Assembly: GCA_026929865.2 (NCBI GenBank)
Contig: CM049398.1
Span: 17,025,501 to 17,089,500, forward strand
Direction: 5' to 3'
Length of the DNA: 64,000 bases
Source of the DNA: Hyperoplus lanceolatus
Lineage: Eukaryota > Chordata > Actinopteri > Uranoscopiformes > Ammodytidae
Positions 10,558 through 63,588 of the stretch are shown in pieces. The first letter of the stretch is position 1. Every line of letters starts with the position of its first letter. Both the position numbers and the translations under genes were made by a program. The notes below the pieces were generated by a model. It made no database searches. It saw only the letters and a list, made by a program, of their open reading frames with translations, and was not told the DNA's origin.

Positions 10558-12983
10558 ATGATTGTCACCATGCTAACAGCCATGTATATCATGGTCAAAG
10601 TCGTAGAATCGGTAAGATGATTTTAATGAAATAAGGAATAGAAATAAGTAATAATATTATTGCATTGAAATTGGATTAAACATGATTCAGTGTGTCAAGC
10701 TAATATCCTGACTTTGTCAAAATGTCACTAGTATTAGAATATTTGTAAAAATCCTTGATTTCATAAAAAGATATGTTTAAAAGTAATGAGTGGTGGTTCT
10801 CTGTGTTTTTGCTGCAACCATAACATTGTAGTTTACCCAACCACCTAGGTTTACAAAGACAGCGTAAACATGTGATTAGGGTGATGTGAAAAATCACATG
10901 GATGGATCAGTGTCCAATTGTGGACAGTATTCAAATTTAATTAATGTGACTTTAAAACAGACTCTTATGGTGCATTATTCCTCGCTCGTATTCCTCTCTT
11001 CTTATTATGTAACATTTGATGCTCATGTTTAAAAAAAAATTCAAAAGTGAAGTACCATCGAAAAGGTCCTCAGGCCAAACTGTATTAAGTATAAGTAAGT
11101 GAACCGGAGGCACCTTGACCTGCACAATGGAACCTCTAACCCAAACTCCTTTTAACTTTCAGATAGGTGTACAGTTTTCACGGCAAGAGGACCCTTTGCC
11201 TTACATGGTGTCCCAGCCATTGCCTTGGCATATTCACTCAGTTTCGCACAGTCGGAGGAGCAGCAAAGTAGACGAGGTTAGTTGTAACAAGATAAGTTGT
11301 AATGAGGGGATTTTACCCCAGTATAGTTGCTGTCTATCACAGCAATGCTGACACTTCAAGGCAATTCATTCTATACAGCAAACACATCACACATTCATTC
11401 TGCACATGGCCGATTCAACCACTGGAACCTAATCCTCTATTTTGGATATGATCCACTGGGGGTCGTCTGTTGTCTTTTGTCTCATGTAGAGACAGAGCTC
11501 ATTGGTCAAGCTTGACTCAGCATGGGAGCATAAGCTTGGTCACATGTTTTACTTGTAGTGTGTCAGAGGAGAAAGAAAGCAGAGGAAATCATTTAAAAGA
11601 CAAGAGTGACTTTTAGCGCCCCTGCACTCAAGCAGTAATAGCCAAATAATATAATAAAAAATAAGATAAAGGTGAGTTTAACTACATACGTTTTGCCATC
11701 TCTGAGCCAATAACAGTGAAACAATCAATATATGATCATAAATACAACTGTCCAAAAATGTCACATTTGTGCATCCTTCTGAAATAGGTGTGTTTATATA
11801 TGTTTACTTATTATGCCTTGTCCTTAGTTTGAGGTAGCTGGTCTGAAGGTCACTTCTGAATGTTCGAAGATGAAGCTGCCTATTAAAAAAGACAAAAAGA
11901 GGAAAAAGAGCCAGGCAAACTTTAGTGGTTAAGAAATTGCTGAAATGATAGGGGAAAAAGATCACATCAGCAAAAGCACAGACTAAACAGAGGCAGACAG
12001 AGATAAAAAGAAAGGCCCTTTGTGTATTTAACTATGTCACTGTAACAACTTTGGTAAAAGATGAGAGTATAGACCATATTGACAAGGTCGTGTCTGTTGG
12101 ATTCAGTTACGGCCCACAGCCAAGGTGACGGGTAAGCAGGCTGAACAGGTCTAGTTCTCAGTCTTCTGGCTTCCCTGCCACTGCTCTGCTTGAGCTGTGA
12201 TCCCAATCAAGGGGATTTGTGTTTGAGGTCATTACCTTAAGTGTAGAAAGAAAGGACACAAAATCACACAGGCACATTGCACAGTCATTACTTAAGCACT
12301 GTACATTTTGTACTGCCAGAGGAATTTGGCCAAAGCGCCTGTTTGACTATCTGTTTGCATGTGTCTGGTTTTGTAACGTCAGTGACTTACGTTTTGGCTA
12401 AGTTACTGATACAACTGTAGCATTGATATTGATCATACCTGACCATTATCTCATGCCTGGGTGCCTCACACCCACACAACAAATTAATCTGTTTTTGTTT
12501 CTCTGCATGTCAGCAGGTCTGTCTTTCTAACACTCAGCTACTCTGTTTCCATTACAGTTTGATGGCTTGAGGAGGAACAGCATAGGCGTGTACAGAAAGA
12601 GTAAGTACCTCTCTGAATGCAGGCTATTTTTTTTTTGCCATAATCAATGTCACCTTAAAGCAATCACTAGGGCTTGATTCGAATCCAATGTCAAACCCAG
12701 CTCAACCTAGAATCAGAAAGAAAAGCCCGCCTGAATCAAAGCTAATATGTAAACCATGTGTTTGGACTTAACCATTGCTACAGACTATGTCTCCATGGCT
12801 ATTGCAACTACCTCTCTGGCTATCCCCTGTGTCCTGTCGTGCCCAGGCTCCAATGCCAGCAATGGGACATGCATTCCCCCCGCTGCTCCTCCACTCAGCC
12901 CTGTTGAAGTCGAGAAGGCCGCCGCCACCATCCAGACCCATTTCAGGAAGTTTCAACAGAAGAAACAGAAGAACGGCAAGTAA
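10558..12983 (+). CDS. PCP4/PEP-19-type IQ-motif protein (four-exon model)
   Basis: Model: exons 10558-10611, 11163-11276, 12558-12600 and 12847-12983, 348 nt in all, 115 residues. Junctions are CG|GTAAGA, CTTTCAG|ATA, GAG|GTTAGT, TTACAG|TTT, AGA|GTAAGT and CCCAG|GC, and the phases (0, 0, 1) agree throughout. The last exon encodes VEVEKAAATIQTHFRKFQQK then KQKNGK-stop. This is the IQ calmodulin-binding motif of Purkinje cell protein 4 (I-Q and the basic HFRKFQQKK tail), a small protein that speeds calcium exchange on calmodulin in neurons. The N-terminal part lacks the acidic run usual before the IQ in PCP4. It instead has a hydrophobic start (MIVTMLTAMYIMVKVVES), which could be a wrong first exon, and a basic Ser-rich middle (HSRRSSK, GLRRNSIGVYRK). 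Last exon: high confidence; exons 2-3: good; exon 1: weak. An alternative acceptor just before the IQ segment (CCACTCAG at 12898) would not keep phase. Confidence 0.62.
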
Positions 12984-13460
12984 ATGGACAAAGACGGCTG
13001 GTTGGTGCCAATGCAGCAAGCCCGAGAGCCAAAGAAAAGCAGGTGGAACGTATGCCCATTCTCCAAAGAATTGGATCTGTGATGGCATACACAAATTCAT
13101 ATATACAGTCATATTACATATGTACATATATTCAAACAAAAACTTATTAGAACACTGAGAATAGTGACACAGTATGAACACAGTAATATACGGCCATAGA
13201 GTACATCTCAGATAGCTGTTTGAAATATGTATTTAAAGTCCAATGTGATCAATGTATGAGAATATACGGTACGTGTAAATGATTGTTAGTTTTGATGTGC
13301 TGTGATGACCGAGTGACTGTGTGAGTGACATCGAGTATGCTGCTATGAGTTTTGAGTATTTAAATATGGAAAAAAACACATCAGATAATTTGTTGACATA
13401 TTGGATCTTTCAAAAACAAACGTAGTTCTAACCTATTTCAATAAACTCTCCTTTAAGCCT
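12984..13460 (+). other. 3' UTR and poly(A) signal of the PCP4-type gene
   Basis: After the TAA at 12981-12983 the sequence is non-coding, and AATAAA occurs at 13440-13445. This gives a 3' UTR of about 470 nt, plausible for a small neuronal mRNA. The stretch 13461-13884 up to the Harbinger element holds nothing that I can identify. Confidence 0.5.
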
Positions 13461-14215
13461 GTGCAGTATTTCATTGAAGCATGATGCCCTCTAGTGTTTT
13501 GGTCAGGTTCGGAATCCTATTATGAATGAGCCACATCTTCAGATGGTTCATCTATAATGCGACAGTAAAAAGTCCCCCTAGGAAGTCTTTTTGTATTATT
13601 AATGTTGTATTTTTAAGTGGCTGCAAGACCTGAAGTAGTCAGAATAAAGTAAATAATGTATTGCATGATTAAAATACAAACATACAAATAACTATCATAA
13701 CCATGACATTGTGAAATGATCAAAAATAATATAATTTGTCATTCCACTCACCCTGAATAAAGCAACAGCCAATCACAAAACTGCCTCGTTCTGTCTCATT
13801 TCTCTCGACAAGGAATCCGTAATGAAAAGTGTCAGAATAAAATAAAATGTAAAAAATTGTTCTGTGACCAGCAACACATATATTGGTCGCGTTTCCCAGA
13901 TTCGTTAAGAGCCTCTTTGGGCTAAGTACTTCTTTGGAGCGCTCTTAAGAACGCCGTGAAAGAAGAATGCGTTTCCCAGATTCGTTCTTAGCGAAAGTAG
14001 CTCTTTCACTAAGATGGAACTGTAAGACGGAGCTTACAACCTTCTTAGCGACCAAATCGTCAGTGATCATGCCGCGTCAGGGAAATTTATTTCCTCCACT
14101 TTTCGAAATAATATTGTAATAAACCTTGCCTCTGGATTAGAGGAGATAGAGAGCACCTTAACAGTTATGCAAGGAAACAAAACGAGGAGGACACTGAAGA
14201 ATACCAATCAATTAT

Positions 14216-14462
14216 CTTTATTGAACATCATGTAGGAGACACGGGACGGGAACACATGTGGAAGAGCCTTTAGGTTAGACCCTCTTTTCTGGTGACACTT
14301 CTCAGGCATTAGCCACCCACACAAACCCCCAGCAACAGGGCACGGCACACAAATGCTGCTATGCAGCCACACCAAACCCCTTAGGGCACTGCACATCAAA
14401 TCTGCACTGCAACCCACTACACGGCAACCCGTGGCGTCAGAGCCCCCCTGTGCACACTGGAC
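14216..14462 (-). other. Harbinger left-arm segment with minus-strand poly(A) signal
   Basis: On the minus strand this segment ends with TTCAATAAAG (AATAAA near 14216-14221), suggesting the 3' end of a Harbinger transcript. It reads open for about 70 codons, but the protein resembles nothing I know and may be 3' UTR. It is continuous with 20256 onward once the LINE is removed. Confidence 0.35.
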
Positions 14463-14480
14463 GAGTTGTTACCCCTGGGA

Positions 14481-14495
14481 GCCAAGATGGCGCTG
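14481..14495 (+). promoter_or_regulatory. YY1-like site at the LINE 5' end
   Basis: GCCAAGATGGCGCTG lies 5 bp inside the element start. CAAGATGGC is the core bound by YY1, and mammalian L1 carries the same core at its own 5' end, where it sets the transcription start. The match is direct; function here is inferred. Confidence 0.5.
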
Positions 14496-14756
14496 TTCTG
14501 AGGAGGCTGCGTTAAACTTTCCTCCGGAAAACTTGGAGGCTTTGATACCACAACTTCAATGGTTTCGACTTGAAAACGATATATATGGCTGCGTAAATTA
14601 GAGAAGAAAGTTTTCCGGTACTTCTGGGCAGAATAATTCAAAGTTAACTTTATAAATGTAAAAAACCCAGTCGACGGAAGGAAATCAATAACGGTTACGT
14701 TAACGGTTTTGTCTTTGTCACCGACCAACATATCAACTGAAACGAAAAAAAAACAA

Positions 14757-15585
14757 ATGGAAGACAGTTGTACCACTGTAATGGAGGCTAATATGGAAGA
14801 AGAACGAGGAGAGGTGAAAACAGACACTGAGGAAGTCTTCTCTACAGAGAAACCTGTGGCGAAAAAAAAGAAGAGAGCACAGCAATGGCAACGGTGAGAG
14901 CGGCTTCTCGGACATAATGGCAGCGATTCAGGTGCTAGCTAAAAAACAGGACGACTCGTTCGGCAAAATCTCGGCAATTGAATTGACTACGAACTCTACT
15001 GCCAAACAAATTGAGAAATTAACGTCCACTGTTGAGCAACTTGTAGTGGACGTTGAGCGTCACAAAGACATATTGAGAACCACACAGCTGGAGGTTGAAA
15101 ACCTAAAAAAAGAAAACAAAATCCTGAGGGCAGGAGTCGCTGACTGCAAACGGTACAGCTGGAGGTGGGCGCTCAAGCTACATGGGATGAAAGAGGAAAC
15201 TAATGAAGATACAAGAAAGCTGTCTATTGATGTGATGGGAAAGGTGGCTCCTGGGCTGTGTGAGTATCTGGAGGAGGGGGTTGACATAGTCCACCGGGTC
15301 GGCCCAAGAAAACACGATGGTCCCCAGACTCCCCACAGATCCATCATTATCCTGTTCGCACTCCGCCGCATCCGTGATGGTGTATGGAAATGCGCGAAAG
15401 GGTGCCGGTTTCTACGGGACAACAAGCTGCGACTGTCTGAGGCTCTGTCTCCGGAGGACAGATTGGCAAGGGAGAAACTGTGGCCTCTGGTAAAGAAAGC
15501 GAGAGAGGAGGGGAAGAAGGCTTCATTCCTGGGCCCCTTTGCTTTGATTGACGGGAAGAAGATCGACCACTTAGACATTGAGTAA
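14757..15585 (+). pseudogene. LINE ORF1 protein, one frameshift
   Basis: The first frame starts MEDSCTTVMEANMEEERGEV and ends soon after KKKKRAQQWQR. The second frame takes over upstream of 14917 (NGESGFSDIMAAIQVLAKKQ) and runs to the stop at 15585. The shift falls at or near an A8 run (14862-14869). The product has a coiled coil (about 14980-15110: heptads with EKL, VEQL, VENLKKEN). An L1 ORF1-type RNA-binding region follows (LKLHGMKEE, VDIVHRVGPRK, RSIIILFALRRIRD, LSPEDR). ORF1p of L1-group LINEs binds element RNA and acts as nucleic-acid chaperone. If the A-run is a sequencing error the ORF is intact. Confidence 0.75.
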
Positions 15586-16234
15586 TGTTTTAGCCTACTG
15601 ACAGCTAGTTGGCTGGGACCTGCCTGACGGCCTCTCGATTCCAGAATGTGGGACCGTTGATCCAACTTCCACCTGATCTGCGGTCCGGCTGGACTCATGT
15701 TGGATATTCCTCCATTTCAAGTAACACAAAAGTTGGTATGAAAAAAAAAAAAAAAAAAAAAAAAAAAATTATAATAATATTAATTTAATTTATTTATTTA
15801 AATAATTTGGATAAGAAAGTATTTTTGGTTGAATGCTCTTATTCATATTTAAAGCTGGTGACCTATGTTTTGGTCCTTAATGGTTAGTTTTGAAATCGTT
15901 GTTTCACATTACATAATGTGTTCATATAGTTTAATTAATATAAAATACCTTGATTTCAGGTGCAGGGTATGATTGCACGGATATGTTAAAGGTAGCCTGG
16001 AATTTATGTATTACGCCTATCTTATATTTATTTTTAGTTATTAGTCAAGTCAAATACATGGTGGTATAAAATATTTATTTTTATTTTAGTTACTTAATGT
16101 TTCCACCACATTATTATTGGTTGTTTATCAATCCTTCTTTCAAAAAAAAGCTAAAGCACACCTACAGTTCTTGTTATCTGTTATTTGAGAGCTTTTCTGT
16201 TTGTTTGTCCTACTGTTCGTTTTTTAGTTATTGG

Positions 16235-19200
16235 ATGGATGTTATTAAGCTAAACCCTCTTACTTTGATGTCACTGAATGTCAGGGGTATACGTGATGCT
16301 GTTAAGAGAAAAGCTATGTTATTATTTTGTAAAAGAAGTGAAGCTGATTTAATTCTACTTCAAGAGACACATTCCAGTGAGTCAGACATTAAGTTTTGGA
16401 AAGGGCAATGGGGAAATGGAATTTACTGTAGTCATGGCACCAATCACTCAGCGGGGGTCTCTGTTTTTCTACATAAATTTAGGGGTGATATTTTAGAGGT
16501 TGTCTCTTCAGATGATGGTAGATGGTTGACTATTATTCTCAAACAGGATAATGCAATTTTCATTGTGTGCAATGTTTATGGTCACAATTCTCGCTCTCTA
16601 AACAAAGGGCTTTTCTCCCAAATAATTTTGAAACTAAAAGAACTATTACAGAAATATTCAAATTCCTTTTTAATTTTAAGTGGTGACTTTAATGAATGTG
16701 CTGATGATGCAAAGGACAGGTATCCGCCAAAAAATTGCCAAACTTCGCAAAGTAACAATCTGATTTTAAAACTATGTTGTGATTTGTCTCTGACTGATGC
16801 ATGGCGCTTCTTATATCCCGATATGCAAGACTTTACTTGGTCAAATAGGAATTTATCTTGTAGATCAAGAATTGATCTTTTTCTGATCTCTACAAATGCT
16901 CTATATCTTGTTAAAGATGTGTCTCACTCTTCTGCTCCTTTATCGGACCATAAACAAATTAGTCTTAAGTTATGTGGTTCACAGGATACTACAAATTTAA
17001 GAGGTTACTGGAAATTCAATAATTCTCTTCTTCAGGTTAACCAGTTTAATGATAGAATTAAAGAAATAATTGAAGAAATATATACTGAAAACAATAAGGG
17101 TGAAAAAAGATGCGAATATTTTACGTATATGTCTAGGTGTGCTGCTATAAGGAGAAGTAAGGAACTGAAGGTCATTAGAAATCAAAACGAATCTGAATTA
17201 TTACATAGAATAAACACCCTTTTATCTAAAACTAACTTAACTTCTGAGGAAGAAATAGAACTAAAGGAGATACAACTCAAAATAGATCAAATTTACAAAG
17301 ATTTAGCTAAGGGTGCATTTATAAGATCTAGAGCCAAGTGGTTGGAGGATGGGGAAACCAACTCCAGTTATTTTTTTGCTCTTGAAAAAAGAAATGGCAA
17401 GAGAAAATCCCTGCAGACTCTTAATATTAACGGAAATCACTGTACAGATTCAAAAGAGATCTCCAACTTTGTCTCCTCATTCTACAGTAAGCTTTACACA
17501 TCCAAATTTAATAACCTCTTATGTGAGACTTACATTTCTAAATTAAAGGAGGTTGTTCCTGCTGTCGAGGAGGACCTTAAAATACTTTGTGACTCAAAGG
17601 TTACAATAAATGAAATTAAAACAGCTATTTTTTCAATGAAAAAAGAAAAATCACCAGGTATTGATGGTCTTTCTGTTGAATTTTATATCCATTTTTGGGA
17701 CATTATTCGAAAGCCTTTATTTTGCATGTATGAGGAGTGTATCAGTCAGAGAGAAATGAGTACAACTATGAAACAAGGTATTATCTCATTAATACCAAAG
17801 CCAGATAAAGACATTTTATTAATAGACAATTCGCGACCCATTACTTTGTTAACTATCGATTATAAAATATTGTCTTTAGCCTTTGCAAACAGATTAAAGA
17901 CAGGACTTGATTATATTGTGGCTGAAACCCAGTCAGGCTTTATGAAGGGTAGACATATTAGTAACAATATTAGACTTGTATTAGACCTACTTGACTATGC
18001 AAACGAAGTACATTCAAAAGCTTTCATTCTATTTTTAGATTTTTATAAAGCCTTCGACACCATTGAACATGGCTTTCTTATAGAATGTCTCAAGCTCTTT
18101 GGTTTTGGGACAACATTTGTAGAAATACTTGATATGTTTTATAAAGGAATTAATAGTTCTGTTATATTAAACTTCAACACATCTCAAAGATTTGATATAA
18201 AGCGAGGTGTTAGACAAGGTTGCCCTATTTCGCCCTTTTTATTTATTTTAGTTGTTGAGCTGTTATCCATAAATATTGCCCAAAATCCAGACCTTAAAGG
18301 CATAACTATATTTGATAGAGAAATAAGAATTTCGCAACTGGCGGATGATACAACCCTTTTCCTCAGAGATAGAGATCAATTACCAAAGGCTATTGAGCTA
18401 GTTGAACAGTTTTCTTCAGCCTCAGGATTAAAGCTAAATATATCTTAATGTGAATTATTGCCTTTGCATGATTGTGATGAAACATCAATAGACAACGTTC
18501 CTATAAAGAATGTGGTGAAATATTTAGGTATTCATATGACAAGAAATCTTTTAGTTAGACAGCATTTAAACTTTAACGAGAGAATTAAGAAAACTAGAAA
18601 TATATTCAATCTCTGGCTTCAAAGGGACTTAACATTGTATGGTAGAGTACTGTTATCTAAAGCTGAGGGGCTGTCTCGTTTTGTTTATCCGTCACTTTCT
18701 CTCTTTGTTAATGACTCCACAGCCAATGTCATCAATAAGTTATTCCTTGATTTTATTTGGAAAAATAAACCCCACAAACTTAAAAAAGCAGTATTATCTA
18801 ACAGTAGAGCGGACGGAGGTCTTGAAGTTTTAAATTTCATCGATACTGTTAATACTTTTAAAGTTAACTGGCTTAAAAGATGCTTAGCTAACCCAAATTC
18901 TTTATGGTTTTTCATCCCTAACCACATTTTTGATAAAATTGGTGGTCTCTCTTTTGTTTTGATATGTAATTACGCACCAAACAGACTTCCTGTTGCATTG
19001 TCAAAGTTTCATCAGCAGTCTCTTCTTGCCTGGAAGTTATGCTACATCCACAACTTTTCTCCTCACAGAACTTTCCTATGGAATAATTATAATATAACTA
19101 TTAAAAATACTTCCCTCTTTTATCCAAAGTGGTTCGAAAGAAATATTGTAAATATTTTGTCTTTATTTGATGAACATGGCTCAATAATATCATATGAGAA

Positions 19201-19723
19201 CTTTATGACAAAGCACAGTTTTCCTATTCCCTTCAAGGAATTCAATGCAGTAACTAAGGCTATTCCTTCAGGTTTGTCTCATCTGATTAAGAGTCATGTT
19301 TGTTTTAATGAAGTACATACTTCCTATGATCTTCCTACATTGTCTTTGAATGGCATGGAATTAAAAGATAAAAAATGTAATAATAGATTCATTCGTCAAA
19401 CATTGCAAAGTAAAAACAAAATTATTCCAAGAGGAAAATTCTACTGGAATTCGCATTTGGAAAACATAAATTGGAAAAAGACGTGGCTTTTACCTCATCA
19501 ATTTTGTATTTCCAACAAGGTAAAAGAAATTCATTTTAAAATTTTACATAAAATCTATCCAGTCAATTCTATAATTTCTAAATATATGGATGTTGATAGC
19601 TCCTGCTCCTTTTGTGGACTCGCTGATGAAACATTTGCCCACCTTTTTTTTTGAATGTGAATATACGAAGAAATTTTGGTATGATTTAAGTTGTTTCATT
19701 TTCCGTCCACCCATGTGATTTTA
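16235..19723 (+). pseudogene. LINE ORF2: APE endonuclease and reverse transcriptase, damaged
   Basis: The open frame begins at 16097, but the conserved part starts at the ATG at 16235. Endonuclease motifs: MSLNVRGIRD, LILLQETHSS, ILSGDFNE and APLSDHKQIS. Reverse transcriptase: KSPGIDGLSVEFY, SGFMKGRHI, FLDFYKAFDTIEH (catalytic D), VRQGCPISPFLF and LADDTTLF (catalytic DD). The C-terminus has a Cys-His knuckle (CSFCGLADETFAH). Lesions: an in-frame TAA at 18446-18448, with the same frame continuing CELLPLHDCDE; a +1 shift at a T9 run (19644-19652) just before ECEYTKKFW; and another shift near 19715. The enzyme would nick target DNA and prime reverse transcription. The style resembles the Tx1 branch of L1. 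Confidence 0.85.
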
Positions 19724-20255
19724 TTCTTAAAGATGTGATATGTTACTTTGACGATGGTAAAGATAAGTCCCTTATTTATATGGTTAATTTTTTTATTTTA
19801 CTTGGGAAATTTTTTATTCACAAACAAAAATTCTTAGAATCCCATCCCACTTTCCAGGTTTTTTTTTGTAGAATTTAAATCATTTTTTAAGTCCCTTTCC
19901 CTGTTAAAAAATAGAAAAAGTTCTAGATTTATTGAGTGTTACCAAACTAGATTTCATGAATCTCCTTGACAACAGGTCAAATGAATTCATACCTCTTTAG
20001 CTAGATTTATTCTTAATATTTTTACAAATGTTTATTAATGTTTTTTTTCATCCATCCTTTATGTATTTTGTATATTTTTTTATATAATTAATATGACAAT
20101 TAATGTATTAAATATGTATGTGTATGTTTATTGTATGTAAAATATTGTGTTGCTCTCTGAGTTTGTATTGCATAATTGTTTTGTTTAATGTAATTGCATA
20201 ATTGTTTAATAAATTTGTAAGAAAAAAAAAAAAAAAAAAAAGAGTTGTTACCCCT

Positions 20256-21100
20256 ACTATTTCCCCCACTAGGTCCCCTGTACTGCCGCGTCTAATTAAA
20301 ATACAATTAATTAACAAAGCTATAAACACACAATACAAATATATATATATCTATATCTAAAAGCTACTTAACTCTCCCAGGAGTTGAGACCCCCCCCTCG
20401 GGGTCTGGGCTTTGGCGCTGGTCCGGATTGGCTGACATGCACGGCTCCGGTCCAACGCAGCGAGGCAGCTCCACAAACTGCAGGAGAGCCTCTACACCAA
20501 TTGGAGAGCGGTTTGAGCACTCCTAAATGATCCCCACCCTATCAGTAACTCGCCCTCAATACTGGAACCTTTCCCTTACTCTATTGCTATCTTCACCGCC
20601 GGCACCCCTAGCGGCATGCGAACGGCCCCACCCCCCAGGCCTGAGTGCATTCGGCTTTTAGAATGGATCTTAGTTGGGCACAAGCCCTGTAACATTCAGT
20701 CCGCTCCCCAACAACCCTGATTGTCATCTGTCTGCCCTTTTTCTAACCTCCTACCCACTCCCTTCAGCTGCATCGCATCATCCTAATTAACGACCACTCT
20801 GTGGCTCACTCTCTGATCACAGCCCATGGTTCACTACAATATAACAATGCTCAATGCGGACCACTGGGCAAGAAACATAGACTAATAGTAGAGACAAAAA
20901 ATGTTTTAATGAATTAGACGTTTACGTTTTCCACACACATGTGAGTTTATAGTACCACTACACATACAAAAAAACAAACATCAACAACCCTGTGGCATTT
21001 CACAGATATCAAGGAAACAGATTTAATTGAACTCAGCTGAACCTCATTCAGAGCGGCTCCAACTGCTAAAGGCGTTGCCAAAGTCCGCGCGTGTGAGAAA
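20256..21100. other. Harbinger internal sequence without clear gene
   Basis: This continues the Harbinger element to the right of the LINE target duplication. It is partly C-rich and encodes no product I recognise on either strand. Confidence 0.45.
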
Positions 21101-21102
21101 CC

Positions 21103-21465
21103 ATGGCTGTAATACAACACCTCGCTGCGAACCAACAGCCTCGCCGTGCGCGAAGCCAGACGGTTTACATAAATGCATACGTGCGTCGGCACTTCTCCCC
21201 ACTGGACGTGCTATCAGACCGGGCCGTCCAGGCAAAGTACCGGCTGCCCCGTGCGGATATCCAACGGCTGATCACTCTGGGGTCTCCACACATCCAGAGC
21301 AACCCGCTGCAATTTTGTCTTCAGCCCGGTCCAACAACCCGCAGCCCCTACCTCTTCACCACCAGTCACCAAGCACTAAACCATAAACCCACAATCACCA
21401 CACATCACCCATATCAACTCTCAGGCCTGAAGGCTGAAATAAATAAACAGAACCAGCAGATGTAG
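21103..21465 (+). pseudogene. HARBI1-like transposase N-terminal fragment
   Basis: The frame starts MAVIQHLAANQQPRRARSQ, then has YINAYVRRHFSPLDVLSDR and VQAKYRLPRADIQRLITL. This pattern (basic arginine run, F-x-D-x-L, then R(F/Y)RLPR-x-x-I) is typical of the N-terminus of PIF-Harbinger transposases. After about 60 residues the similarity ends, and the DIRS insertion begins at 21477. No DDE domain follows on the far side of that insertion, so the gene was already truncated. Confidence 0.55.
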
Positions 21466-21519
21466 GCTACATGTAACGTAAGTTATGAACATAACTATGG
21501 ATCTATGAGACCGACCGAT

Positions 21520-21661
21520 GACCGTCACTACGGTCTAACCGTGAATGATACCCTCCATTCTACCTATCTTTCGAGACCATAATATCAACAGAGTCGTATG
21601 ACCGACCTTTAGAGGCGGGCTCGGAGTGCATAAAGCATCCGGGGGAGCACGCCTCTTCCTC
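21520..21661 (+). repeat. DIRS left inverted terminal repeat
   Basis: From GACCGTCACTACGG to CGCCTCTTCCTC the sequence matches the reverse complement of 27200-27341 over 142 bp with no difference that I can see. The unique left extension 21477-21519 is instead complementary to part of the internal complementary region. Confidence 0.88.
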
Positions 21662-21700
21662 CTGCCTGGAACGCCTCAGCCAGTTCCGAGCGACAAGAGA

Positions 21701-21798
21701 TAGTGACGGTCATCGGTCGGTCTCATAGATCCATAGTTATGTTCATAACTTACGATCTATTTCGACCTCCCTCAGACCGTCACTACGGTCTAACCGTG
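21701..21798 (+). repeat. DIRS internal complementary region (ICR)
   Basis: The first half (21701-21754) is the exact reverse complement of the element's left terminus (21477-21530). The second half (21752-21798) is the reverse complement of its right terminus (27318-27364). The two halves meet at ACG, the complement of the terminal CGT. This is the arrangement that lets a DIRS transcript be circularised through its ICR during replication. Confidence 0.9.
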
Positions 21799-21809
21799 GA
21801 TGAGTCATA

Positions 21810-22880
21810 TCAACAATGTCGCGAGGAAGAAAATTCCCCGTCATCAGTCCGCTCGGTGGCAGACCTGAGAATAGTGGAGCCCATGGTTGCGGACGCAACA
21901 TTGACCCTATAAAATCTGGTGAAAGTGCATGGAGTGCTCCATGAAGCAGCCGCACATATATCACCTAGGGCAACTCCTTTTAAAGCTGCCCATGACGTGG
22001 CCATACTTCGTGTAGAGTGAGCCACAAGGCCACCAGGCATCGGGAGTCCCTGCGTGGTGTAAGCCTGGGCAATCGTCTCCACCAGCCAGTGGGAAAGACG
22101 CTGTTTATACACTGGGTGGCCCAACTGTCTATCAGCATAACACACAAACAGCTTAGTATGTGACTGCCTCAGCTGCTGAGTATGGCTGACATAAGCCCTC
22201 AATGCTCTTACTGGACACAATGTATGAAGAGCAACTCTTCCTTGGCACGCAGGATCAGGGTGAAATGCCTCCAGCTCGATCGCTTGATTAACTGTATCTG
22301 GCCTTACCACTTTAGGCAGGAAGCAAGGGTTTGGCCAAAGAGACACCCCTGCGTTCTCGGGCTTCCACCTTAAGCACTCGTCACTAACAGACAGTGCGTG
22401 TAGCTCACTCACCCTTTTAGCTGAACATATGGCCAAAAGAAATGCAGTTTTTTGTGTCAAGAACTTTAAACCCGACTGCTCTAGCGGTTCGTATGGGGCA
22501 ATAGCCAAAGACCTCAACACCAAAGGGAGGTCCCAGGATGGGGCTCTCAAGCTCCTGCTTGGCCGCAGGCGGTTAGCGCCCTTGAGGAACTGAGACACCA
22601 TGGGGTGCTTTCCCACAGAAAGACCTCCCACTGTCTCGTGAAATACAGAAATAGCGGCAGCATAGACCCTCAGGGTGCTTGCTGCCCTCCCCAGGCCCAG
22701 TAGGGACTGCAGGAAGAGGAGCACCAAAGCCACCGGACAGGTGACCGGGTCCAACTCCCTATTTTGGCACCATGACGAAAAGAAATTCCATCTTTGTTGG
22801 TAATTGGCTCGTGTAGAAGGTGCCCTGGCATTATTTATCGTCTCCAGGACGGCTTCACTCAAATCCCGAGAGATGGACTG
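21810..22880 (-). CDS. DIRS tyrosine recombinase
   Basis: The frame is the same as the reverse transcriptase start but overlaps the end of the RNase H frame. It begins around ISRDLSEAVLETINNARAPS and ends EFSSSRHC at the ICR. A core-binding region (STRANYQQRWNFFSSWC) is followed by the catalytic domain. The catalytic Arg lies in AICSAKRVSELHAL, His and Arg in VAHSTRSMATSWA (about 22008-22024), and the nucleophile Tyr in FTRFYRVN (about 21903-21927). The enzyme integrates circular element DNA without target duplication. All four R-H-R-Y positions are present, so this gene may be functional. Confidence 0.85.
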   Translation of the reverse strand, partial: QSISRDLSEAVLETINNARAPSTRANYQQRWNFFSSWCQNRELDPVTCPVALVLLFLQSLLGLGRAASTLRVYAAAISVFHETVGGLSVGKHPMVSQFLKGANRLRPSRSLRAPSWDLPLVLRSLAIAPYEPLEQSGLKFLTQKTAFLLAICSAKRVSELHALSVSDECLRWKPENAGVSLWPNPCFLPKVVRPDTVNQAIELEAFHPDPACQGRVALHTLCPVRALRAYVSHTQQLRQSHTKLFVCYADRQLGHPVYKQRLSHWLVETIAQAYTTQGLPMPGGLVAHSTRSMATSWAALKGVALGDICAAASWSTPCTFTRFYRVNVASATMGSTILRSATERTDDGEFSSSRHC

Positions 22881-24779
22881 AGGAGGGGCCAGGCCCATAA
22901 CTGCATCACAGACGGGTTCGGGTGCCAGATTTGGCCCCGTGCCTGAGAAAGAAGGTCTGCCCTGCGGGGCAAGGGCAAGGGTTGACCGTAAACAAGACGG
23001 AGGAGGGCCGGGAACCAATGCCTCCCCGGCCAGTGTGGAGCCACTAACAGGACCCTGTAGCACCCCTGGGCAATCCTGTCTAGCACATGGGGTACCAATG
23101 GAAGCGGAGGGAAAGCGTATAGTAACCCTTCCGGCCACTCTTGAGACAGTGCATCCAGGCCTAAAGGGCTGCACGGCTGCCTCAGGGAGAACCACCTCTG
23201 GCAATGGGTTGTCTCCCTGGAAGCAAATAGATCCACCTGGAGCTTTCCAAAGTGAGTTGACAAGGTCACTACAACCTCTGGGTGTAGTCTCCATTCTCCC
23301 GGGAGAGGTCCGGACCTGGAGAGGAGGTCCGCCGCTATGTTCAAGACCCCTGGTATGTAAACCGCCTTGAGTGAGGCCAGGCGTGGGAAGGCCCACGTCA
23401 GAAGCCTCTGGGCCATCTTTAGGCAAGAGAGGGACCTTGTGCCGCCCTGATGGTTGATGTTGTACACCGTGGCAGTATTGTCTGTTCTTACAAGGACATG
23501 TCTGCCCTGTATGAAGGGAATAAGAGCCTTGAGGCCCAAATAAACTGCCCTTATCTCCAGCACATTGATATGTTCTGTGTCCCAAGGAGGCCCCCAGAGA
23601 CCCCTCACCGCTCTGCCTTCCCAGACCGCCCCCCAGCCTGACTGGGAAGCATCCGTAGACACTATGGTCCGCCTCGAGGGGAGATTGCCCAAGGGGGGCT
23701 CCCTGTGTGAGCAACCTGCTGTCCCGCCATGGGCGCAGGGCTCTGAGACATGAGTGTGTTATCCGGAGCTTTACATGCCTGTCCCTGTGTGGGTTTAGGT
23801 TGAAAGCATTTAGCCACCGCTGTAGAGGCCGCGCCTTGAGGAGACCTAATGGAATCACCACCACTGCTGCCGAAATCGACCCCAGTAGTCTCTGAAGGTG
23901 GATTAGTTCTAGGCGCTTGCCAAGGCGAAAGATGCGCAGGGCCCCCAGAATTTTTGCCACTCTCTGAGGGGTGAGTGATGCCCTCATCGTGAGGGAGTTC
24001 AGACATAGTCCTAAGAAGACTGTCTCCTGCCTTGGCATGAGATTGCTCTTCTTCAAGTTGACCTGGAAGCCAAGAGACTGAACGTGGGACAGGACTGTCC
24101 CTGTGTCCTGCACTACCTGCTGGCAAGACGGAGCGCAGACCAACCAATCGTCCAGGTACGGCATGATTTTTAAGCCTGCCCTCTGTAGGGGCATCAAGGC
24201 AGCTGCCACCACCCTGGTAAATACCCTGGGGGACAGGGAGAGGCCAAATGGGAGGACTTTGAACTCGTAAGCCTGTCCCCGAAAGGCGAAGCGTAGGAAC
24301 TTCCAATGTTCCTGACACATAGGGACGTGGAAATAAGCGTCCTTGAGATCGATAGTGGTGAACCACTCCTTTTCCTCTATTGCTTCCATGATGTGCCTTG
24401 TGTGCAGCATCTTGAAGGGTAAGGTTTTCATAAAGGCATTTAAGCCCCTGAGGTCCAGAATGGGGCGCAGCCCCCCGTCTTTCTTTGGAACCAGGAAATA
24501 TATTGAATAAAAGCCAGTGTGCTGTTCGCTGGAACTTACTTTTGCAATTGCTCCTTTTTGTAGCAGTGTGGCGATTTCCTCGGCCAACACATCTGCCTGG
24601 ACTGGGTCCTTCACGGATGTTATCCGGACCCTGGAAAAAGGTGGGGGCCGCCGCCGAAATTGGAGCCTGTAACCCCTGGTGACTGTTGCCAGTACCCAGG
24701 GGTCTGAAACTTTCTGCTCCCAGCTGTCCAGGCGTAGCTGGGAGTGAACCCCGGCGGCTGTCCCACCAATCCTATTCAC
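22859..24779 (-). pseudogene. DIRS reverse transcriptase-RNase H, one frameshift
   Basis: The reverse transcriptase shows LVPKKDGGLRPILDLRGLNA, FTTIDLKDAYFHVPM (catalytic D) and YLDDW (24144-24158). RNase H continues in another frame with IVSTDASQSGWGAVWEG, NVLEIRAV, VRTDNTA and LNIAADLLSR, ending at 22859. The change of frame falls at a C6 run (plus-strand G6 at 23693-23698): with five C the two frames join (GAPLG then NLPSRRTIVSTD). The start is uncertain. The frame is open past a GTG at 24779, overlapping the end of gag, so translation may depend on frameshifting from gag. In the undamaged element the polymerase and recombinase frames would overlap near 22860. Confidence 0.85.
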
Positions 24780-26415
24780 GACCCTGCCGGGGCCTTTGGC
24801 CCCTCGGGGGACGTCTATTTTGGGGAGCCCCTCTTGATGTTGAGTGGGACTGAAACCCCCGCTGCAGTGGTCTTACTTTAGCACCGCTGTAGTCCTGGTT
24901 GCCCGGGCTCTGACGTCCGTTACGCACCCAAGGATCCTGACGGCCCTCAGCAGTCTGATATGGTTGCTGCCGGCCAGTAGGTCGCTGCCTTGTCCTCCCA
25001 GGGTGAGTGAACGTGCGTTGCACACTCTCCCTGGCACGTGCAGTTTGTTCAGCCTTCTTCAGCACATTCTGGGAGTCTGAATGAAACATTGAGCCCGGCT
25101 CCACTGGCATATTGGTGAGCTCGCTCTTAATACTCGCTGGGAGGTTCGTTTGAGCCAGCCAGATCTGCCTGCGGGTCATCATGGCTGATGACATAGCCGC
25201 CCCCCACATCCCGGGTGAGCTGGGAATGGGTGGATAAGGCCGCATCTACCAAGTTCCTGGTATCGCGGTCAGCTGCGCTAAGAGTCTTCCTGATAGCTGC
25301 CAGTAGGATAGCCAAAGCATTTCCTGAACAAGCTGCACGAGCAGCTGCATTGTAGGTCCTGCAGACCAAGCGGTCCGTCTTGTCGCACTCCTTTCGTGGA
25401 CATCGTGGGTCAACTGTGACCTTCTCTGGGCTGAGAGAGGTTAAGGCTGCCATCTCCTTCTCCACCGGAGGCATACCCCCCAGTCCTGTCTCCGACGGGT
25501 ATTGTGCCTTAGCCACCCTTCTGCAGCCTGTATTAAACTGAGGTGCTTGGCTAGGAGTACTCCAAGCTCCTTTCAGCATCTTGCAGTAGTCTTCTGCTGC
25601 TGGAATAGCCACTGAAGGACGGGGTTGTGGAATGCCAGCCCAGACCCCCCCTCTGTCTGACTTGGGACTTCCACTGGGGTGTCAAGTCCCAGGATCTTGG
25701 CAGCACTCAGGACCCTTGAGAACACACTATCTTGACCCGGCTCTTCTGAACACTCATCTGCAGAAGCAGATCCCTCTGGATGGGATGAGCTGAGGCCGTG
25801 TGGCTCTGCAGCAAACTCCGGTTGTCCCTCTTCTGCGAAAAGGGAACCCCGGGCATATAGGGATATAGAGTCCGGGTGGTTGGCTTCTGGCTCCTGGTAC
25901 GATGACATATATGCGGAGGATGTTCGACCAGAGGTGTGAGTCTCAGAGATAGCTTCACTCTGAGAGCGAGTTTCAATTCTGCCCACCCTGTCTGTCAGGC
26001 CACGAATGGCAGACAAAATTTGCAGCTGTATATCCTCCCGTCCTGCCGCCGCCACTGGGGTGGGGCCTGGACCTTCTGGCTGCAGAGCCCCTCTTGCGGC
26101 TCGTCTTTTGCTACGGCCATGGGAATGCTCACGTTGGCGTTTGCGTGATTGGCTGCTCTTAGAGTGGCGGTCCTGTATCCTACCATCGGTGGGAGAAGGA
26201 GCACCTGCCGCAGCACCGGGGGGGGGTTCTCTTAACCAAGCCCTCCGAGACCTCTCGTCCAGCGGTAGGTCCAGTGCAGCTGGACATGGGGACTCCACAT
26301 CCTCCAAGAGGTGAGCCCTGCCCAAGCATGGGGGACACTCTCTGTGACCATCACGGGGGTCCATGGTCGCTCCACAGGAACGGCATGTCTGGGGGGCCAT
26401 AGTGCCCAATTTCAC
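24772..26415 (-). pseudogene. DIRS gag-like protein, two frameshifts
   Basis: Three overlapping frames make up one gag-like protein. The first (26415-25573) starts with a Cys/His cluster (CRSCGATMDPRDGHRECPPC) that could bind zinc, then a basic stretch (SRKRQREHSHGRSKRR). The second (25612-25127) holds a helical region (SSEYS-free, with YNAAARAACSGNALAILLAA). The third (25245-24772) is basic and Gln/Arg-rich, ending QRPRQGRE. Joins are explained by a missing C in a C4 run (plus-strand G4 at 25621-25624) and an extra base in a G6 run (plus-strand C6 at 25200-25205). Gag packages element RNA; details for DIRS elements are little known. Confidence 0.7.
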
Positions 26416-26419
26416 CCCA

Positions 26420-26690
26420 AATGTGTACGCGGACGTACACTGGGGGACAACTAAAGGAACCCGACCGTCTGCGCACAGAGGTTAAGGGAAGCTTTAAGTT
26501 GATCAGCAGCCTCCTAGCTTAGCTGATTTTTCCTCTTTATTCTTTTCTTTTTTTAATGAATCCAATTCACCCACAATATGTACGCGGACGTACACTGGGG
26601 GACAACTAAAGGAACCCGACCTTCTGCGTACAGAGGTTAAGGGAACCTTTAAGTCGATTAACAGCCTCTTAGTTAAGCTGCTTTTTTCTT
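26420..26690 (-). repeat. Tandem duplication in the DIRS 5' leader
   Basis: A block starting TACGCGGACGTACACTGGGG occurs at about 26425 and again at about 26580, with roughly 110 bp of similarity (GGGGACAACTAAAGGAACCC, CAGAGGTTAAGGGAA). It lies directly upstream of gag and could be part of the element's promoter or leader. The remainder to 27199 is leader sequence with a pyrimidine-rich tract (26685-26755). Confidence 0.7.
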
Positions 26691-27199
26691 TCTCTTCTTT
26701 TCTTTTCTTTCCTTCTTCTCCTCTATTTTTCTTTTTCTTTCTTCTTTTTCCCTACAATGGGGAATAAATAAAGAAACACGCTTTTCAGGGAAATTAAGTT
26801 GACCATCAAAATCAAAATCAACTCTGAAATAGTACGAATCACCACTCTTGGGACGTACGAGGAAAATATACAAATAAAGCACTTCTAATGCCGGCAGGCA
26901 AGGCTTTGTTATTGTACCTATTCTTAGTATTTAACAAATTTCGCCCCAACACTGCTTTTTCCTTGCAGGCTAAGGGGAGAAGCAACAGGTGTTAACAATC
27001 AACAACAATCAAACACCATGCGCTACAAAACTACTGGAGACCTTTCGGTGCGCCAATAGTTACAAACTGTAATCACAGGGAAACCAGTTTAACAATCCTC
27101 AGGGACACAAGGCACCTGCACAATAATGTGACGGATTACCAGCTTCCTACATTTTCAAACACAACTTACCGGTCTCTCAGATGAGGCGAGAAAGGCAAA

Positions 27200-27364
27200 G
27201 AGGAAGAGGCGTGCTCCCCCGGATGCTTTATGCACTCCGAGCCCGCCTCTAAAGGTCGGTCATACGACTCTGTTGATATTATGGTCTCGAAAGATAGGTA
27301 GAATGGAGGGTATCATTCACGGTTAGACCGTAGTGACGGTCTGAGGGAGGTCGAAATAGATCGT
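27200..27364 (-). repeat. DIRS right inverted terminal repeat and terminus
   Basis: Positions 27200-27341 mirror the left repeat. The last 23 bp (27342-27364, ending AGATCGT) are absent from the left repeat but present, inverted, in the ICR. Element sequence ends at CGT before Harbinger sequence CCTGCACACT resumes. Confidence 0.88.
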
Positions 27365-27499
27365 CCTGCACACTATGATTATTGCTGCAGTGTCCGGGTG
27401 TACCTAGTGTTGCTAGGTTTGACACCCTCATTTCAATGCAAAATGATCCACACAGTAAATGATTGAAAAGGAAACCAACGTAGTTTATTGAAACCATAT

Positions 27500-27841
27500 G
27501 GGGGAGGGGTGACTCCGCGTTGTCTTTACTGGGCGTCTGCATCACCTGCAACGAAGGGAGATTGATTAGTGAAACCTTCTCACTCTTCCTTTTTGTTTGG
27601 TTCTGGAACTCCTGCCACTTCTTCCTCACAGCACGCCAGTCACGCAGGCCACATGGGCTGGAGGGGGACATCTTTTCGGCTATGGCCTGCCTAACACGGT
27701 TCATCACCGTGATGTTCTTTTTGCCCCTTTTTCCCCGAATAAAACTCCCCTGTGCTGCCAGACCTCGTCCACTAAGACGCCCATCTCCTCCGCGGTAAAC
27801 GACGGTGCCCGCTTGTTTCTTTTGCTGCCGCTTTCTTCCAT
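27500..27841 (-). pseudogene. Harbinger Myb/SANT-like DNA-binding protein, frameshifted
   Basis: An ATG at 27841 opens MEESGSKRNKRAPSFTAEEM and VLVDEVWQHRGVLFGEKG. The frame then shifts near 27715 to ITVMNRVRQAIAEKMSP, LRDWRAVRKKWQEFQNQTKR. Together these make the trihelix Myb/SANT-like domain of the second protein of Harbinger elements, which binds element ends and helps import the transposase. AATAAA on the minus strand near 27484-27490 gives its 3' end. The frameshift makes this copy non-functional unless it is a sequence error. Confidence 0.72.
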
Positions 27842-28262
27842 TCTCACATCACATGTGTGTGCCTATATCCATGGGGTATGTATGCGCTAATGGGCTTGAT
27901 TACTACTTTGATACACTTGTTGCCACACACACCCGCACCCACACACCCCCCACACACACGATACATGCGCAGCCTAATTCCACCTGTGTGGGGGAGACCA
28001 CGGGGCGCTGTGTGTGACTTATGCGCTGATAAAGAGGTGGGTGATCGATTCGCCTGGCATCTATTTATTCAGTTTCAGCACGACCGCGGTGGACAGCTCC
28101 CACTAAAGTGCTTCTTTCGCTTCAACTTACGCGTTCTCCAAAGATGGCACTTAAGAAGCCATCTGGGAAACACCCGTATCTTAGCGCTCCTTCTTAGGCA
28201 AACCCTTCTTTCGACCCTTCTTTGGTCCCAAAGAACGATCGAATCTGGGAAACGCGGCCATT

Positions 28263-28850
28263 GTCATTATAGTGAAACATTGCTTGTTTAATTTTGAACA
28301 CTGCGGGTCTCCTACTGGGCGAAAAACCTGAAGATAAATGACAGATGACTGCTTTTTTGTTTGTTTTCCACACATTAAATCTTGACTAATCCCAGGGGCA
28401 TCATAGTGGTATGTAAAGTGGGAAAAACTATCCAGGGCTCCAATAGAATGAAAAGTTAATTGTCGTTAAATTTTATTATTTTTTTATTTCTAAATAATTA
28501 GCATCATAAATACATTTAAATTGGTGGAATAAATCACTTGATTGACTGAAGTGTGCAATATGTAAAATATATTGCCTCCAGAACAAGTGTGTCCATTGCC
28601 TTGGAATTGACAGACATTCCTGTAATTTTTTTAATTTGAGCCATTGAACATTCTGCCTGAAGAAATGGTCTCAGTAAAATCTAACAGTTAGGTTTCAAAT
28701 AGATGAATGAGCAAGAAGACTCTTTCACAAACAAGTCTAGCCCTTACCACCTTCCAACTGCAGTAAAAACTTGATCACACAAGTCCTTTATGTAAAATGC
28801 TACTCAGGCTGAAATAAATGAATAATAGCATCACAGTTCATAAAAAGATA
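28263..28850. other. Intergenic region between Harbinger and dscaml1
   Basis: A/T-rich sequence without coding potential that I can support. It separates the right end of the Harbinger element from the probable cleavage site of the dscaml1 transcript. Confidence 0.5.
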
Positions 28851-28852
28851 GC

Positions 28853-31800
28853 TTTATTGCACAAGGTGTTGAGTACTCTTTTTCTGTTTTTGTTTGTTTT
28901 CATAGAAAAGAAAATGTAGAGTTAAACACAAGCAATTGCAAATTGAAGCAACGTTTTCCCCATAAAAGTTTAAGGAACAACCTCTGCATTTTAAACTGTC
29001 TTAATTAATCCCTGTTTAAATGTGGTCAATTCACCTTTTACCCTCTCCTATTATAACCAGCTTAGTTTTCCGAACATGCAATGCTGCTGTCCTCCTCCCC
29101 CCAAAAGTGAAATAATAATAAAAAAGGCAACCTTAAATCAAGCAACCTGTGAAAAAATTAAATAAGAAAGAAAAGGAAAAAATATATTTTTTTAAATGCA
29201 ACCAAATGTCCTGTAAAAGAAGAAATCAATATTGTCAATTATGCATGGTCCACTCTGACATGGTTCAACTGGTCCATAAATGAAGATAAAGCCGTGTCTG
29301 TATAATTCTATAGTTTTTCATTAAGTCCTCTTCTGTTTAATTACAATAACTTCAGTTCAAAGTTTACATTGTGCCCTGGTTTCTAGTGAAGATGTCGAAA
29401 ATAGTACTCATTTATACAAAACACTTTCCTATGTACACAAATCTTCAATTATGGAGTAGACATTAAGTTGTATAGGTGGGCAAGGGGGTAAAGTGAGAGG
29501 GGGAAGATCTGATTGGTTGTGTAGACGTGGAAAAGGTTGGGAAAGTAGTTCATATGAAGTTGGCCTTAACAACAGAGGCCAAGTCAGTTTGGAAAGTATG
29601 TTGTTGTATTTTAAGGGAAAATCCACCTTTAATCAATCATTATTTATTTGAACACTGCAGATATTTTGTCAATTGTTAAGTCATGCTGCAGCTAAGAAAT
29701 CGGCTGCTAAAATAGATACATTAGAAAGGAATTAACCTGATTGAACAGTACGGTTAGCAAATGCATATGGTAGTATGTTTGCAAATTGCCCAAAGCAACT
29801 AGTCAATTTTAGTTTTTAGTATACAATAACAAGATTTATCATTTCATTTTTCTTCTCTTTCTTTTCTTTTTTAACAATAGACGGAAGAATATCTGGATTA
29901 ATTTTGTGGGGCCAACAAAATATTTCCTGTCATTTTAGGATGACAAAAAAAAACACACAATCTAACGACATACACATACTGTACAAAAAGCACACTTATT
30001 AACAATCGTATTTGTATTGTTGATATTCTCAGTAACAGTGTCAAAATATCAGCAGATTGAATTTTCCTTAAAAGGTGAAATACTTTGAGCAAACTGACAA
30101 TAGATCATGGTTTTACCCTAAGAGCAACTTCACTAAAGAACTGGGGAAAGCAGGTTGGACAGGAGTTTACTTCATCACTCCATCCAATATCCATACAGCT
30201 GGAGTAAGGAAGCCTCCGTTTCTTAGTTGCTAAAACAGAAACTTGTTTCCCTGAAAACAAGTGTGAGCACACCTCGAAAACATGAGGGCCAAAATGAAAG
30301 GCATCATAACCATTAACAATGAAAAGCATACTTCATTTCTCTCCTGTCTACTTGTAAAATAAAAGGGAGCACGGATACATGTATGAGCAATTGTAACTCA
30401 TGTGGTATGTTTATCGGCCTGAAGTACCGGAGTTTGGGGAGGACTTGTTATGACACAGATAAGAAACATAAATATTTGTTGGTCTGTTTGTCTTCGTTAA
30501 TAACTGTCAGGTAATGGCATCAAGTTTGTGAAAACACCTTTGGAGGGTACACTACGACATTTTACAATAGGCTCACTCACTGTACAGGCTGTCCTTGTTT
30601 TTACCGTTTTTCTTTTTCAACACCACACTTTCTGCACTGAGCCATAGACCACAGGTCACAAGCAACACAATCTCACACTATAAATTGACTTTACTGTGCT
30701 TGTCCTTTTAGCTCCTACCTTCTGCACAGGTGCTGCAGCCAAAACAATTACACAATCACAAAGGGGGTCACTGTATCATTCTTCAAACCTCAGTTTCACC
30801 ACTGAACTTTCTTTCATACCACCTCCTTTGCTCTCTACGATCTCCCGTCCATGGTTGTGCTACCCGTTTTAAGCCTCCTTATTCTTTTTCCTTCCTTCCT
30901 TCTTGCAGTTTTTCTCTATGAGCGATTGTCTTGTGATCTTTTATATATATTTTCAATTAGAACGGCTTTTATATTTCTCTGCTTTTTTCAATATTCATAA
31001 ATTTACTATATATTTTGGATAGAAATATATATGTACATACTTTTGAAAACAAACATATATCATATCTTTTTCTATTGCGAGAGCCCTGATGTTACGTTTT
31101 ACCATTGCAAAACATTTTGGAGCAACTCTACTTTTTTTTTGGAACGATCTTTGTTATGGGATTAAGCTTTGGGAGAAGAAATGGGGAGAAAAGAAATTAA
31201 CTTTAAGTTAACGGATACAGTATCATGCATAAAGCTAAAGTAAATTTCAGTGAGTTTGAGGGTCTTGAAAACACATCTTTTAGTTTTGAAGACAACTTAT
31301 TTCTGAAGAAAAACCTGTATCCATCTGCTATGTAACTATTCCCCATTTCCCTAACAGAACTGCTAATGCTATCAACACTTGATCTCTCTGGCTATAATTT
31401 TAAAGTCATGTCCGTCCATAAATTCAAAACAACTTGATACAAATAGGATTTTTTCTTGTATACATCTCAATACATTTGCTGTGTGTTTGCAACTTGTCTC
31501 TCCACTCATTGAACTCCAAAAGGCATTTCTGCCTCTCTGTGCATATTAGACCCTTTTTGCTCTGTCTGTCTGTCTGTTTTCTTTTTTTAAACTAGCCTGT
31601 ATGCTAGTATTAGGTCACAGTGACACTGTATGGATATGATAGGGGACTGGTGGGTAGAAGTGACCGTCAGGAAATGATAGGGGAACAAGTGGCTACAGGT
31701 AAAATGAGTTAAACAAAGTAGAATAGCATGTTGGTGCCAAGATGAATCACAAAAAGGTATCTTCCTGCATTGTTTTGAGGGGGGAACAAAAAAATTAAAT

Positions 31801-32133
31801 TTAACATATTTCTTATCATCTGCTATTGTTCTCATTGAACCCCACATCATCTTCAGTATTTACCATTTCCTAAGCAATGCTGTCAATGACACTCAACAAA
31901 AACAAAGTTCAGAATTCTGGACCAAATTAGGATCATAGTGTTACATCATCAGCATCATTGTCATTACTGTCCCCCAAGTCCCCTTTCCACGGGTACAAAA
32001 TGAACAGTGTAGGTAGGGGGTAGTCCAGTTAGGATGCAGACATCTGCCTGAGAGGTCAGCATACAGATTGATTTTTAAAAAGGTCCACTGTTAGTGTGTG
32101 CCTGCCACTTGAATACATATACAGTATATATTT

Positions 32134-32206
<73 letters not shown>

Positions 32207-33059: not shown

Positions 33060-63588
<30,529 letters not shown>

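What the first reader, a model, noticed from the sequence alone, without database searches (positions are those of the whole stretch)
10558..63588. A PCP4-type gene convergent with dscaml1 mirrors the PCP4-DSCAM pair
In human, PCP4 lies next to the 3' end of DSCAM and converges on it. Here a gene with a PCP4-type IQ motif converges on the 3' end of dscaml1, the DSCAM paralogue. The simplest reading is that both pairs descend from one ancestral neighbourhood duplicated with the genome, and that this fish kept a PCP4-family copy at the DSCAML1 site, which I do not know from mammals.
Basis: partly seen in the sequence, partly recalled or inferred. Interest (0 to 1): 0.75.

Follow-up and report, generated by a model that had tools for sequence, protein, structure and literature searches.

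The report
Third PCP4-like gene beside fish dscaml1
This fish genome has a small gene with a PCP4-type calmodulin-binding motif facing the end of dscaml1, just as PCP4 faces dscam, and it looks like an old relative of PCP4 that has lost the acidic stretch PCP4 uses to tune calcium.

Summary
The adhesion gene is dscaml1 (tail 92% identical to recalled DSCAML1, 76% to recalled DSCAM). About 20 kb past its stop, on the other strand, is a final exon with a PCP4-type IQ motif (12847-12983).

The same genome has true pcp4 about 17 kb past dscam, in the same convergent arrangement, and pcp4l1 on another contig. All three IQ exons are entered in phase 1 and hold 137, 128 and 131 coding nt. The window gene shares 13 of 21 core residues with fish pcp4; fish and human PCP4 share 18. 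It is single-copy and unlikely to be a recent copy. Best reading: an old third PCP4-family gene at the DSCAML1 site.

Limits: the tree does not resolve its place. The three upstream exons are no better than many chance chains. The C13 dscaml1 has no detectable copy. Other fishes could not be examined. The exon keeps seven calmodulin-contact residues but lacks PCP4's acidic calcium-tuning sequence, so I file it as a probable PCP4 homologue, not as an acidic/IQ PCP4-type protein.

The parts
12847..12983 (+). Last coding exon of the PCP4-like gene, phase-1 acceptor, IQ motif, stop codon included
12906..12968 (+). PCP4-type IQ block EVEKAAATIQTHFRKFQQKKQ
   Evidence: tblastn to PCP4, 65% over 20 residues; core counts
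12558..12600 (+). Candidate exon 3 (FDGLRRNSIGVYRK, phase 0 to 1); not shown
   Evidence: splice scores; chain null
11163..11276 (+). Candidate exon 2; not shown
   Evidence: splice scores; chain null
10558..10611 (+).
   Evidence: splice score; chain null
13440..13445 (+). First AATAAA after the stop codon, possible polyadenylation signal
33060..63591 (-). dscaml1, 3' part: exons from the stop codon to the last exon matched in the window; the 5' part lies outside

Best explanation
The window holds a third, old PCP4-family gene that converges on the 3' end of dscaml1, as pcp4 converges on dscam. The two neighbourhoods most likely descend from one ancestral convergent pair (PCP4-like and DSCAM-like) duplicated with the genome before the teleost duplication; the copy beside the C13 dscaml1 was then lost or has diverged beyond detection. 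Shown: the IQ exon, its position and orientation, the pcp4/dscam pair in the same genome, the shared phase-1 last exon, and the missing acidic sequence. Inferred: descent from the early vertebrate duplications, expression, upstream exons and function. Most likely mechanism: the C-terminal IQ helix binds the C-lobe of calmodulin at low calcium and holds or competes for it, but without the acidic plug it should not speed calcium binding as PEP-19 does.
For: pcp4 (C4:24939200, plus) faces dscam (minus) with about 17 kb between stops, and the window exon (plus) faces dscaml1 (minus) with about 20 kb. Last coding exons of window gene, pcp4 and pcp4l1 all enter in phase 1 with 137, 128 and 131 nt. 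PCP4 is the only PDB hit. A codon pattern for IQxxFR[K/R]FQ matches only the window exon and pcp4 in the assembly; I built it from residues the two share, so what it shows is the absence of any third match, and the reversed control had one match. Seven of seven calmodulin-contact residues named in PMC5122967 are kept. GC3 of the exon is 0.66 against 0.35-0.40 total GC in the flanks. bace2 lies beyond dscam and bace1 is on the same contig.
Against: Sister position to PCP4 is not resolved (support 54 and 47). The genome search with human PCP4 did not list this exon, and the search with this exon did not list pcp4, so similarity is short and weak. The C13 dscaml1 flank has no hit to the exon better than E 0.21. 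No gene shared between the far sides of the two pairs was recognised. dscam and dscaml1 lie on the same contigs here (C4 and C13), so an old same-chromosome duplication is not excluded. No transcript and no orthologue in another species was seen.
Confidence: 0.62

Rival explanations
1. A copy of pcp4, or of a small segment, came to lie beside dscaml1 later, in the fish lineage, and then diverged fast, so the mirrored pairs are not inherited from the early vertebrate duplications.
For: pcp4 and the window gene are on the same contig, C4. The C13 dscaml1 has no detectable copy. The tree puts the window gene on a long branch.
Against: Core identity to pcp4 (13 of 21) is below that of pcp4 to pcp4l1 (14 of 21) and of fish to human PCP4 (18 of 21). 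The same convergent orientation beside a DSCAM-family 3' end would have to arise anew. The region is single-copy at DNA level.
Confidence: 0.18
2. The exon is a decaying or non-functional remnant of a PCP4-family gene.
For: The upstream exons do not exceed the null, the acidic sequence is gone, and no transcript was seen.
Against: Open frame to a stop at the place expected from pcp4, acceptor among the best 1.8%, seven contact residues kept and raised GC3.
Confidence: 0.12
3. The IQ block belongs to an unrelated IQ-motif gene and the PCP4 likeness and position are coincidence.
For: IQ motifs are short; the profile of the PCP4 exons also finds Cav1 and IQSEC1 IQ segments in the PDB at E 0.0018-0.01. 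The alignment alone would reach only about E 0.7 genome-wide (my scaling). One chance match to the reversed pattern was found.
Against: Same last-exon phase and nearly the same length as pcp4 and pcp4l1, with the stop 5 codons after the KK of the motif, and the predicted position beside a DSCAM-family gene.
Confidence: 0.08

Closest known systems
PCP4 / PEP-19 (beside DSCAM)
   Same: 13 of 21 core residues, phase-1 last exon of similar length, IQ motif near the stop, convergent on the 3' end of a DSCAM-family gene
   Different: No acidic sequence before the IQ motif, no hydrophobic plug at F30/I32 (A and P here), T for S48, V for P37
PCP4L1
   Same: 12 of 21 core residues with the recalled human protein and 11 of 21 with the fish one; phase-1 last exon, 131 nt
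   Different: PCP4L1 has the acidic sequence; in this genome it lies on C23, away from DSCAM-family genes found here
Neurogranin and GAP-43
   Same: Small proteins with one IQ motif (recalled)
   Different: 8 of 24 aligned residues shared with each (recalled sequences); they group together apart from the PCP4 set with support 90 and 100

Membership tests
PCP4 / PEP-19 family | C-terminal IQ motif of the IQxxFR[K/R]FQ kind | tested here: met
PCP4 / PEP-19 family | Calmodulin-contact residues A42, I46, Q47, F50, R51, K56, K57 | tested here: met
   seven of seven kept, but S48 is T; in the paper Q47N together with S48T abolished binding
PCP4 / PEP-19 family | Acidic sequence next to the IQ motif with F30, I32, M34 plug | tested here: not met
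   A, P, L at the plug and no acidic residue opposite E28-D35 (feature from passages of PMC5122967)
PCP4 / PEP-19 family | Last coding exon entered in phase 1, about 130 nt | tested here: met
   137 nt here, 128 in pcp4, 131 in pcp4l1
PCP4 / PEP-19 family | Tree position within the PCP4/PCP4L1 clade | tested here: inconclusive
   support 54 and 47 for the PCP4 side
PCP4 / PEP-19 family | Binding to calmodulin | not testable with these tools
   needs an assay
2R ohnologue of PCP4 at the DSCAML1 site | Present beside DSCAML1 in several early-branching vertebrates | not testable with these tools
   no other vertebrate genome in the collections
DSCAML1 | Closer to DSCAML1 than to DSCAM | tested here: met
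   tail 92% against 76% (recalled references); PDB 1va9 at 8.2e-48; 94% to the C13 copy against 79% and 77% to the two dscam loci

The most novel reading that the evidence does not exclude
A third vertebrate PCP4-family ohnologue exists at the DSCAML1 site, kept in at least some fishes and missing in mammals, and it is a natural IQ-only PEP-19: it holds calmodulin without the calcium-steering acidic sequence, a separation otherwise made by deleting or mutating that sequence in the laboratory.
Probability: 0.42. Interest if true: 0.6.

Novelty: new variant of a known kind. Interest (0 to 1): 0.42.

Why it matters
If the gene is conserved across fishes, the PCP4 family has three old branches rather than two, the PCP4-DSCAM linkage predates the duplications that made DSCAM and DSCAML1, and one branch has separated calmodulin binding from calcium tuning. 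It would give fish laboratories a testable small gene beside a neural adhesion gene. If it is confined to this species, it is a curiosity.

Tried and rejected
Four-exon model from 10558: tested by splice scores and null chains and kept only as a candidate. In one search it tied for the best of the 40 chains with three upstream exons and ranked 10th of all 76 chains. A single-exon reading from an ATG at 12795 is in frame, but its 5' part lies in the likely polypyrimidine tract and the acceptor upstream of it is weaker (best 10%), so I did not prefer it.

Recent copy: not favoured. IQ exon beside the C13 dscaml1: no hit better than E 0.21 in the 130 kb fetched there, 2,500 bases of which are masked. 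No hit at E 0.1 or better in about 19 kb past the C13 dscam or in the 30 kb before the window.

Shared far-side genes of the two pairs: none recognised; only the longest frames were looked at. Kir-channel positions put the two closest matches (85%) on C4 and C13; the other Kir genes were not assigned, so I draw no paralogon proof from them.

Literature: searches listed no paper that I recognised, from titles and abstract starts, as describing a PCP4-like gene beside dscaml1. One search was uninformative: 14,323 papers matched and 12 were shown. PMC13069148 holds both names but concerns expression and holds no word beginning with 'synten' (passages). Fish annotation databases and most subscription journals are not searchable here, so the gene may already be annotated.

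A slip of mine: the recalled GAP43 segment was out of register by one residue, so its counts there are void; one search has it in register.

Full report
Setting. The window is C4:17025501-17089500 of an assembly of 806,742,258 bases in 527 contigs, a fish by its gene content. I had no other vertebrate genome. Comparisons are within this genome, with PDB sequences, or with human sequences recalled from memory.

The adhesion gene. DSCAM-family exons run on the minus strand from 63591 to the stop at 33060-33062. The tail is 92% identical to a recalled human DSCAML1 tail and 76% to recalled DSCAM; for the C4:24.96 Mb locus it is the other way round, 90% to DSCAM and 77% to DSCAML1. A FnIII exon matches PDB 1va9 (DSCAML1) at 8.2e-48. 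A tail search found four loci: this one, C13:20.81 Mb (94%), C13:32.04 Mb (79%) and C4:24.96 Mb (77%). I read them as two dscaml1 and two dscam genes. A table passage of PMC11612004 gives zebrafish dscama and dscamb as products of the teleost duplication.

The IQ exon. At 12847-12983 an exon reads [S]SNASNGTCIPPAAPPLSPVEVEKAAATIQTHFRKFQQKKQKNGK and a stop. Human PCP4 matches at E 5.6e-5 in the window, with the next hit at E 1.5. In the PDB, PCP4 (2n77) is the only hit at E 1 or better, at 0.0066. The Pfam IQ model gives 15.4 bits, under its cut-off of 20.3; human PCP4 itself gets 14.7. Scaled to the genome the PCP4 match would be about E 0.7 (my arithmetic). The genome search with human PCP4 listed two places, which I read as pcp4 and pcp4l1, and not this exon. 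The search with this exon listed only itself. Similarity alone is therefore weak.

What raises it above chance. First, position: pcp4 on the plus strand at C4:24,939,200 faces dscam with about 17 kb between stops, and this exon faces dscaml1 with about 20 kb. bace2 lies beyond dscam at C4:25.12 Mb. [quoted passage not shown] Second, architecture: the last coding exons of this gene, pcp4 and pcp4l1 are all entered in phase 1 and hold 137, 128 and 131 nt. Third, rarity: a codon pattern for IQxxFR[K/R]FQ matches two places in the assembly, this exon and pcp4, with one match for the reversed control. I built the pattern from residues the two share, so the two matches were given; what is informative is that there is no third. 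Fourth, GC3 of the exon is 0.66 while total GC of the flanks is 0.35-0.40; four dscaml1 exons tested gave GC3 of 0.53-0.79 and pcp4 0.83.

Age. Of 21 core residues the window gene shares 13 with fish pcp4, 13 with human PCP4, 12 with human PCP4L1 and 11 with fish pcp4l1. Fish and human PCP4 share 18; pcp4 and pcp4l1 share 14 (human sequences recalled, PCP4 agreeing with 2n77 over the stretch shown). The gene region is single-copy at DNA level. A recent copy would need fast change. In a seven-sequence tree NRGN and GAP43 group together with support 90 and 100, and the window gene falls on the PCP4 side with support 54 and 47 in the two alignments, so sisterhood to PCP4 is unresolved.

Loss or divergence elsewhere. 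In 130 kb around the C13 dscaml1 tail, including 78.7 kb of 3' flank, the exon has no hit better than E 0.21; a p190RhoGAP gene lies on that 3' side. In about 19 kb past the C13 dscam there is no hit at E 0.1 or better. cep164 and bace1 lie together at C4:31.63-31.66 Mb, 14.6 Mb from dscaml1; in human CEP164 abuts DSCAML1 (recalled). In one search dscam and dscaml1 share contigs, so an old same-chromosome duplication is not excluded from this genome alone.

Upstream exons. The chain 10558-10611, 11163-11276, 12558-12600 has splice sites among the best 1.8-3.2% (consensus matrices recalled), and GC3 of 0.60 over 70 codons against local GC of 0.39. Chains scoring as high were found at 38 of 133 null acceptors. 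In a second null, 54 of 199 acceptors had such a chain and 23 also met the length and GC3 conditions. The model is plausible but not shown. The candidate third exon runs from phase 0 to phase 1, as pcp4 exon 2 does.

Mechanism. Passages of Wang and Putkey 2016 (PMC5122967) say that PEP-19 binds the C-lobe of apo-calmodulin by an IQ helix; that changes of I46 with Q47, A42, F50, R51, K56 or K57 impair peptides; that Q47N with S48T abolishes binding; and that the acidic sequence 30-40, anchored by F30, I32 and M34, is needed to speed calcium binding, while an IQ peptide without it does not do so. By the alignment the window exon keeps A42, I46, Q47, F50, R51, K56 and K57, has T at 48 and V at 37, has A, P and L at the plug and A, P and S at D31, D33 and D35. 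Prediction: calmodulin binding kept, calcium steering lost. The T at 48 is a caution for binding. Nothing was assayed.

Membership and novelty. It meets the IQ-motif, contact-residue and exon tests of PCP4 and fails the acidic-sequence test. I therefore call it a probable PCP4-family homologue and a new variant, not an acidic/IQ PCP4-type protein. The searches listed in Tried and rejected showed no description of it; annotation databases were out of reach.

Noticed in passing
L029:7429-9999 (C4:17022929-17025499, minus), abutting the start of the window: An 857-residue open frame with a URGCP-like GTPase domain (E 1.7e-18), the nearest recognised gene upstream of the IQ gene.
   Followed up: partly
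window 28844-28952: A stretch 80% identical to C13:20804190-20804294 lies past the dscaml1 stop in both copies; it may be dscaml1 3' UTR or a conserved non-coding element.
   Followed up: no
window 14818-19654 and 21813-24872: Two retroelements between the IQ gene and dscaml1: one with endonuclease and reverse transcriptase, one with a 1020-residue frame with reverse transcriptase. The first frame, 14818-15582, has no Pfam match.
   Followed up: partly
window 60440-61504 and 45798-46166: A reverse transcriptase frame and a Tc3-type transposase helix-turn-helix frame in dscaml1 introns.
   Followed up: partly
L014:5878-9735 (C13:20793878-20797735, plus): A p190RhoGAP-type gene converges on the C13 dscaml1 where the C4 copy has the IQ gene.
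   Followed up: partly
G000 C4 and C13: dscam and dscaml1 lie on the same contig twice, on C4 and on C13, and bace1, bace2 and cep164 are all on C4; in human these are on chromosomes 21 and 11 (recalled).
   Followed up: no
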